DNA of 64,000 nucleotides, from the NCBI RefSeq assembly GCF_001029105.3, contig NZ_CP011807.3, positions 4,092,001 to 4,156,000 of the forward strand, in the 5' to 3' direction. This document shows, in pieces, positions 32,200 to 33,676 of the stretch; the stretch's first letter is position 1, and the number at the start of each line of letters is the position of its first letter. The notes under the pieces are model-generated. The model saw only the letters and a list, made by a program, of their open reading frames with translations. It was not told the DNA's origin and did no database searches. Made by a program: the position numbers and the translations under genes. This DNA is from Pandoraea faecigallinarum. Lineage in GTDB: Bacteria > Pseudomonadota > Gammaproteobacteria > Burkholderiales > Burkholderiaceae.

Positions 32200-33676
32200 T
32201 CAAACGCTTCGCCCGTACCGACGACGCCTCATCGCCCAATGCCGGCCGCCGCCGCGCCTTGCGCGCTGGCGCATCGACCCTGATTCTCGCCCTCACCGGC
32301 CCCCGTCTGGCCTTCGCCAATGCCATCGTCGCGGTGCGCGTCTGGCCGGCGAGGGACTACACACGCGTCACGCTCGAGACCGATAACCCCGTCAGGTTCC
32401 AGCAGCAGTTGATGGAAAGCCCGAACCGCTTCGTCATCGATCTCGACGAAGTGGATCTCAGTCCTGCGCTGCGCGAGCTCGTCGCGAAAATCCAGCCGAA
32501 CGACCCGCAAATCGCGCAAGTGCGCGTGGGGCAATTCAAACCCGGCGTGGTGCGCATGGTCTTCGACCTGAAGGCGGGCGTGAAACCGCAGTCGTTCACG
32601 CTGCCGCCGGTGGCGGGCTACAAGTACCGAACGGTGTTCGATCTGTATCCGGCCGTCGAACCGGATCCGCTCATGGAACTGCTCGCGCAGACGGCGAACA
32701 AGGCCCAGGCGCTCGCACAGAATTCGCATTCGTCCCCGGCACAGGGCGGCGGCACCACACCCAGCACGGACGAAAGCGAGGCATTCTTCCAGAAGTACGC
32801 GCAGCGCGAACCAGGTGGACGAATGCCCAAACCCGGCCCGGCACCTACCGCACCCGCCATACCGGACAAGGCACCTCCGCTGGCCCAACGCAAGGGGGAC
32901 AAGGAGGACAAGGACGACGCCGACGACTACGTACCACCGGCAAATGCGCAGAAAACGGCGCGTCTGCTCACCATCGCGCTCGACCCGGGACACGGTGGTG
33001 AAGACCCCGGCGCCGTCGGCGCGCGCGGCACTTGCGAGAAGGTCGTGGTGTTGCAGATCGCCCAGCGCCTGCGCCGGAAGATCGATGCCGAGCCGAACAT
33101 GCGCGCGATGATGACCCGCGACGCCGATTTCTTCGTGCCGCTCGGCGTGCGGGTGCAAAAGGCGCGTCGCGTCTCCGCCGATCTCTTCATGTCGATTCAC
33201 GCCGACGCGTTCACCTCGCCCTCGGCCAACGGCGCATCGGTGTTCGCGCTATCCGAACGGGGCGCGACGAGCGCGACGGCGCGGCTTCTCGAAAGGACAC
33301 AGAATGCATCCGATCTGATCGGCGGCGTCAACATCAAGACGAACGACCGCACAGTCGCCCACGCGCTGCTCGATATGTCGACGACGGCGCAGATCCGCGA
33401 CAGCAAGGTGTTCGGCACCGCGCTGCTCACGCAGATCGGCACGGTCGCGCCGCGCCGCGCCTGCATAGCAAGAACGTCGAACAAGCCGCGTTTGCCGTGC
33501 TCAAGGCGCCCGACATCCCGTCGGTGCTTGTCGAGACGGCCTTCATCAGCAACCTCGACGAAGAGCGCAATCTGAACGATCCGGCCTACCAGGAGCGATT
33601 GGCCGACGCGCTGCTCAAGGGCATCAAGGCGTATTTCGCCAAAAATCCCCCCATCGCCAAGAACCGCACTGCCTGA
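32193..33676 (+). pseudogene. amiC: N-acetylmuramoyl-L-alanine amidase AmiC, frameshifted at a GCGCC repeat
   Basis: The ATG at 32193 opens a 460-codon frame with a Tat-like signal (GRRRALRAGASTLILAL), an AMIN domain (about residues 50-150), a Pro/Asp-rich linker, and an Amidase_3 domain with zinc ligands in LDPGHGGEDPG, GTCEKVVVLQIA and SIHADAF. After LLTQIGTV the frame goes wrong: the conserved end LHSKNVEQAAFAVLKAPD and the catalytic Glu in VLVETAFISN lie in another frame, stopping at 33676. The break coincides with (GCGCC)3 at 33447-33461; with two copies the reading frame is intact (492 residues). As written, the enzyme lacks its catalytic Glu. The cause may be real slippage or a sequence error. 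It normally cleaves septal peptidoglycan during daughter-cell separation. Confidence 0.88.
33447..33461 (+). repeat. Pentanucleotide repeat (GCGCC)3 at the amiC frameshift
   Basis: Three exact tandem copies of GCGCC. Removing one 5-nt copy makes the flanking amidase frames continuous (T-V-A-P-R-L-H-S-K). The extra unit changes the frame by +2. Confidence 0.85.

What the first reader, a model, noticed from the sequence alone, without database searches (positions are those of the whole stretch)
33447..33461. amiC is frameshifted exactly at a (GCGCC)3 repeat; two copies would restore it
The amidase reads normally through the zinc ligands, then loses the conserved LHSKNVEQ...VLVETAFISN end, which lies intact in another frame up to 33676. 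Dropping one GCGCC unit gives T-V-A-P-R-L-H-S-K and a 492-residue protein. All other long genes in the window are intact. Slippage in the 15-bp tract could switch the septal amidase off, giving chaining cells; a base-calling or assembly error in a GC-only tract is the competing explanation.
Basis: partly seen in the sequence, partly recalled or inferred. Interest (0 to 1): 0.7.

Follow-up and report, generated by a model that had tools for sequence, protein, structure and literature searches.

The report
Broken cell-separation gene in one strain
In this Pandoraea bacterium the gene for the enzyme that separates daughter cells is knocked out of frame by one extra copy of a five-letter repeat, most likely an ordinary one-off mutation rather than an evolved on/off switch.

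Summary
(GCGCC)3 lies at 33447-33461 and splits amiC into a start piece (32193-33575) and an end piece in another frame (33461-33676) that carries the active-site glutamate. The genome is a Pandoraea, probably P. faecigallinarum DSM 23572T (inferred). amiC is its only Amidase_3 gene. It is in one frame in 31 of 31 other Pandoraea genomes and 80 of 80 named relatives.

The switch reading is not supported. Of 29 unnamed Pandoraea loci read, the two closest have two units and 27 have no GCGCC tandem. Such tracts are near chance frequency. No protein with the shifted tail was found.

A sequencing error is possible but not favoured: 451 genes compared with P. vervacti gave two frameshift pairs, amiC and one end-of-gene divergence. 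The tail is still conserved, so the break is recent or artefactual.

Best reading: a recent 5-bp tandem duplication inactivates the sole septal amidase, of the lacI (CTGG)n hot-spot kind, revertible in principle. Raw reads would decide; error about 0.2.

The parts
32193..33575 (+). amiC start piece as it reads in this sequence: ATG to first in-frame stop, 460 aa (AMIN domain, Amidase_3 positions 1-117, zinc ligands, then 39 foreign residues)
33447..33461 (+). (GCGCC)3 tract, the site of the frame break
33461..33676 (+). amiC end piece in another frame (Amidase_3 positions 120-173; AmiA E242 equivalent at codon 33533-33535), stop included
31666..32199 (+). upstream neighbour, tsaE-like ATPase gene overlapping the amiC start by 7 bases (name recalled from its sequence; used as a control gene)
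34744..36891 (+). mutL downstream, open (name recalled from its sequence; used as a control gene)

Best explanation
A recent 5-bp tandem duplication (two GCGCC units becoming three by replication slippage) in the strain or culture that was sequenced put the last 71 residues of AmiC out of frame. The product keeps the export signal, the AMIN domain and the zinc ligands but lacks the end of the catalytic domain with its active-site glutamate, so it should be inactive. As this is the only Amidase_3 gene in the genome, daughter-cell separation should be impaired but cells viable. Loss of a unit could revert it, as at the lacI (CTGG)n hot spot, but nothing shows an evolved switch. Shown: the break, the sole copy, the intact relatives and their shorter or absent tract. 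Inferred: that the DNA truly carries it, the loss of activity, the phenotype.
For: Exact coincidence of tract and break. Two units in the two closest relatives, L084 and L085. Gene in one frame in 31 of 31 other Pandoraea genomes and 80 of 80 named loci. Only 2 frameshift pairs among 194 + 257 P. vervacti genes sought in 264 + 400 kb of this genome, the other being a diverged gene end, so the consensus is generally sound. Mutation of the AmiA E242 equivalent abolishes activity in a chlamydial AmiA (PMC13104611, passages). A single amiC mutation in Neisseria gonorrhoeae, which also has one separation amidase, gives viable unseparated clumps (PMC6365954, passages). CTGG gain and loss at lacI position 592 is a mutational hot spot in Pseudomonas putida (PMC3485313, passages). 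Weak hint of relaxed constraint: Y to C beside the Glu80 equivalent and P to L in the tail at columns otherwise invariant in 93 taxa; private amino-acid to synonymous changes 17:40 in own amiC against 17:90 in three relatives pooled, Fisher p = 0.044.
Against: No raw reads and no second isolate were available. The relaxation hint vanishes against this genome's own flanking genes (39:122, p = 0.48) and was looked for after the fact. The tail pN/pS of 0.057 and 0.060 to the two closest relatives is like that among relatives (0.000-0.064 for the pairs of L084 or L085 with L085, L088 and L091), which an error would also give. PMC3711429 (passages) expects most single, BLASTp-supported frameshifts in databases to be sequencing errors.
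Confidence: 0.65

Rival explanations
1. Consensus or assembly error: the strain has an ordinary two-unit, intact amiC and the third unit was added in a GC-only tract during base calling or assembly.
For: If the strain is P. faecigallinarum DSM 23572T, its plasmid paper reports PacBio reads assembled with HGAP 2 (PMC5064223, passages). Tail still conserved. Single BLASTp-supported frameshifts are expected by PMC3711429 to be mostly errors (passages). Loss of the only septal amidase should be costly.
Against: Frameshift background is low: 2 pairs in 451 genes over 664 kb, one of them amiC. Whole-unit 5-bp gains are not the usual long-read error, which is in homopolymers (recalled; the search was seen as a listing only).
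Confidence: 0.2
2. Phase-variable (contingency) locus: slipped-strand mispairing at (GCGCC)n switches the septal amidase, and so chaining, on and off.
For: Tandem repeat exactly at the break; one-unit difference from the two nearest relatives; slippage at comparable short tracts is known.
Against: Tandem absent in 27 of 29 unnamed and 17 of 17 named Pandoraea loci read; tract count near chance; no other shifted copy found (word-limited search; 27 candidates, none at E <= 1); MutS and MutL frames open; three units is short for a contingency tract (recalled).
Confidence: 0.08
3. Programmed ribosomal frameshift joins the two pieces in translation.
For: The tail is kept under low pN/pS; a -1 shift within the tract would enter its frame.
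Against: Relatives need none: one frame in 31 of 31 and 80 of 80. No X XXY YYZ slippery heptamer in the tract (read by eye).
Confidence: 0.02

Closest known systems
lacI (CTGG)n frameshift hot spot
   Same: Gain or loss of one short unit in a chance tandem repeat inside a coding gene gives a revertible frameshift null (PMC3485313, passages).
   Different: Five-base unit, housekeeping gene; gain and loss rates here are unmeasured.
Slipped-strand phase-variable genes (contingency loci)
   Same: Short tandem repeat inside the reading frame whose copy number decides whether the protein is whole.
   Different: No conserved or variable tract in relatives, no enrichment, housekeeping function.
AmiC family septal amidases (AMIN + Amidase_3; E. 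coli AmiC 4BIN, Neisseria AmiC)
   Same: Both pieces match AmiC best among NCBIfam models and 4BIN best among solved chains.
   Different: Split over two frames here, so no whole catalytic domain.

Membership tests
Slipped-strand phase-variable locus | Tandem repeat in the frame whose unit number sets the frame | tested here: met
Slipped-strand phase-variable locus | Tract kept in relatives with varying copy number | tested here: not met
   Two units in 2 of 29 unnamed Pandoraea loci, no GCGCC tandem in 27; 0 of 17 named Pandoraea loci
Slipped-strand phase-variable locus | Tract longer or commoner than chance | tested here: not met
   3 tracts of 5-mer x3 in 264 kb, simulated mean 1.5, range 0-3
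Slipped-strand phase-variable locus | Mixed or reversibly switching alleles in a population | not testable with these tools
   No reads and no second isolate held; nearest protein in the listing is P. vervacti at 89% (best 120 of 3809 shown)
AmiC septal amidase | AMIN plus Amidase_3 domain | tested here: met
   Present, but over two frames
AmiC septal amidase | Complete catalytic domain in one reading frame, reaching the family cut-off | tested here: not met
   NF038267 scores 368 and 89.7 bits for the two pieces against a cut-off of 700
Programmed frameshift gene | Frame change conserved among orthologues | tested here: not met
   0 of 31 Pandoraea genomes and 0 of 80 named loci show it

The most novel reading that the evidence does not exclude
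A slippage switch on the only septal amidase of the cell: clones gain and lose a GCGCC unit at a measurable rate and so move between single cells and chains or clumps.
Probability: 0.07. Interest if true: 0.6.

Novelty: new member of a known kind. Interest (0 to 1): 0.17.

Why it matters
If the DNA truly carries it, a strain with no working Amidase_3 gene exists outside the laboratory constructs, and its cell separation could be studied directly; Pandoraea would be a genus with one septal amidase, where a single mutation should show. If it is an error, a genome record carries a false pseudogene in a core division gene. Neither overturns what is known.

Tried and rejected
A first frameshift screen took long chance frames for genes and was discarded. 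A second with codon-usage gene calls used an 85% coverage rule that hides amiC itself; it was replaced by the two-piece test. The first upstream pN/pS table was out of register for most relatives and was redone; its tail half was sound. A suspected frameshift near window 20,120 turned out to be an indel between two genes. In-frame-stop and truncated cases (2 and 2, 2 and 3 for P. vervacti genes in this genome) were not followed, apart from a look at the gene calls around window 46,902. In the reverse direction, 197 genes of this genome sought in P. vervacti gave 5 frameshift pairs, one of them amiC, and 263 gave none. Paper searches on amiC with phase variation and chaining, amidase AmiC with frameshift and Pandoraea with cell chains or amidase listed nothing on this break; only listings were seen. 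Head-on orientation (dnaA at C1:532; negative GC skew) agrees with the P. putida finding that unit insertions prevail in head-on genes, but origin and terminus were not mapped, so it is not counted as evidence.

Full report
What is there. The (GCGCC)3 tract is at 33447-33461. The frame opening at ATG 32193 runs through it to a stop ending at 33575; the conserved end of the amidase lies in another frame from 33461 to 33676. Searched apart, the start piece matches AMIN and Amidase_3 positions 1-117 and the end piece Amidase_3 positions 120-173. Both match AmiC best among NCBIfam models, at 368 and 89.7 bits against a cut-off of 700, and E. coli AmiC 4BIN best among solved chains.

What is lost. 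In E. coli AmiA the zinc is held by His65, Glu80, His133 and, in the resting state, Asp135 and Glu167 (PMC10268282, passages). By the alignment, the His65, Glu80 and His133 equivalents are in the start piece. The alignment puts E242 on the glutamate of the VETAF stretch, in the end piece. Mutation of its equivalent in a chlamydial AmiA abolishes activity (PMC13104611, passages), and the like residue of CwlD is called the putative catalytic glutamate (PMC8496864, passages). So the piece translated here should be inactive (inference).

Whose genome. The relatives by protein are Pandoraea. The window's genome has replicons of 5,241,671, 386,625 and 104,368 bases. P. faecigallinarum DSM 23572T has two plasmids given as 402,292 and 124,395 bp, sequenced with PacBio and HGAP 2 (PMC5064223, passages). 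The sizes differ, but that paper's pPO70-1 is also longer (640,227) than the later record (633,357). The name is therefore an inference. G031 has a contig of 5,636,000 bases, the same length as the contig of the P. vervacti protein P0001, so G031 is taken as P. vervacti.

Is it the only one. PF01520 matches this genome at two places, the two pieces of this gene. Each of the 31 other Pandoraea genomes has one match, over positions 1-173. One Amidase_2 gene and four M23 genes are present; they were not assigned to AmpD, NlpD or EnvC.

Relatives at the tract. All 80 named loci (17 Pandoraea, 63 other Burkholderiaceae) have the end motif in the frame of DPGHGG. Among 29 unnamed Pandoraea loci read, all are in one frame; L084 and L085, the closest, have two GCGCC units and the other 27 have no GCGCC tandem; the 17 named Pandoraea loci have none either (the two sets overlap in species; loci of G023 and G030 were not returned). 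The repeat is thus a by-product of codon choice in one small clade.

Chance. First-order Markov simulation gives 1.5 tracts of 5-mer x3 per 264 kb (range 0-3, 10 runs) against 3 seen; 5-mer x2 tracts number 301 against 316-329 in 3 runs. At the two other x3 tracts the P. vervacti alignment shows no clean unit change; only the amiC tract differs by exactly one unit.

Error or mutation. Of 194 P. vervacti genes with a homologue in the 264 kb around and including the window, 2 gave a frameshift pair: amiC and a gene whose last 29 residues are 65% alike and whose DNA shows several gaps, an ordinary diverged end. Of 257 more in the first 400 kb of the chromosome, none did. The consensus is therefore good, and a whole-unit gain is not the usual long-read error (recalled). 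Against this, PMC3711429 expects most single BLASTp-supported frameshifts to be sequencing errors (passages).

Age. The tail has pN/pS 0.057 and 0.060 to the two closest relatives and 0.027 to L088, much as among relatives, so the break is recent or false. The rest of the gene gives a weak hint of slackening: 17 private amino-acid to 40 private synonymous changes against 17 to 90 for three relatives pooled (p = 0.044), but not against this genome's own flanking genes (39 to 122, p = 0.48). Two columns otherwise invariant in 93 taxa have changed here: Y to C just before the Glu80 equivalent, and P to L in the tail; the only others listed with more such changes in amiC are L111 and L112. In the 82-taxon run L018 has more as well. 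The test was made after the fact and is counted as inconclusive.

Switch. A contingency locus should keep its tract and show variants. Neither is seen. A search of 5.8 billion proteins for the shifted tail (residues 415-459) found 27 word-sharing candidates and none at E <= 1; a truncated or unannotated copy could be missed. MutS and MutL frames are open, so no mutator state is suggested.

Likely effect. In N. gonorrhoeae, which also has a single separation amidase, amiC mutants live as clumps (PMC6365954, passages); other species show chaining, though Rhizobiales do not (PMC8416486, passages). Viability of this strain without AmiC is therefore credible, and chains or clumps are expected (inference).

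Verdict. A real observation, most likely an ordinary recent loss-of-function duplication at a chance repeat (0.65), with an error as the main rival (0.2) and a switch unlikely (0.08).

Noticed in passing
whole genus (32 genomes): Each of 31 other Pandoraea genomes has exactly one Amidase_3 match, unlike E. coli with three septal amidases (E. coli number from PMC6365954 passages).
   Followed up: partly
window 46902-47612: A gene with a DnaA-domain match (Hda-like; name recalled) is 236 aa here against 245 aa predicted in P. vervacti; the alignment shows one in-frame stop.
   Followed up: partly
G000 C1:1394283-1394570, C3:50889-51176, C2:171808-172110 and C2:274310-274612: Pairs of equal-scoring DnaA-domain matches on chromosome and plasmids, probably copies of an insertion-sequence ATPase gene (guess).
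   Followed up: no
G000 C1 about 4072700 (own-region coordinates 80706-82098): A gene whose last 29 residues lie in another frame at 65% identity to P. vervacti, with several gaps in the DNA alignment: a diverged gene end.
   Followed up: partly
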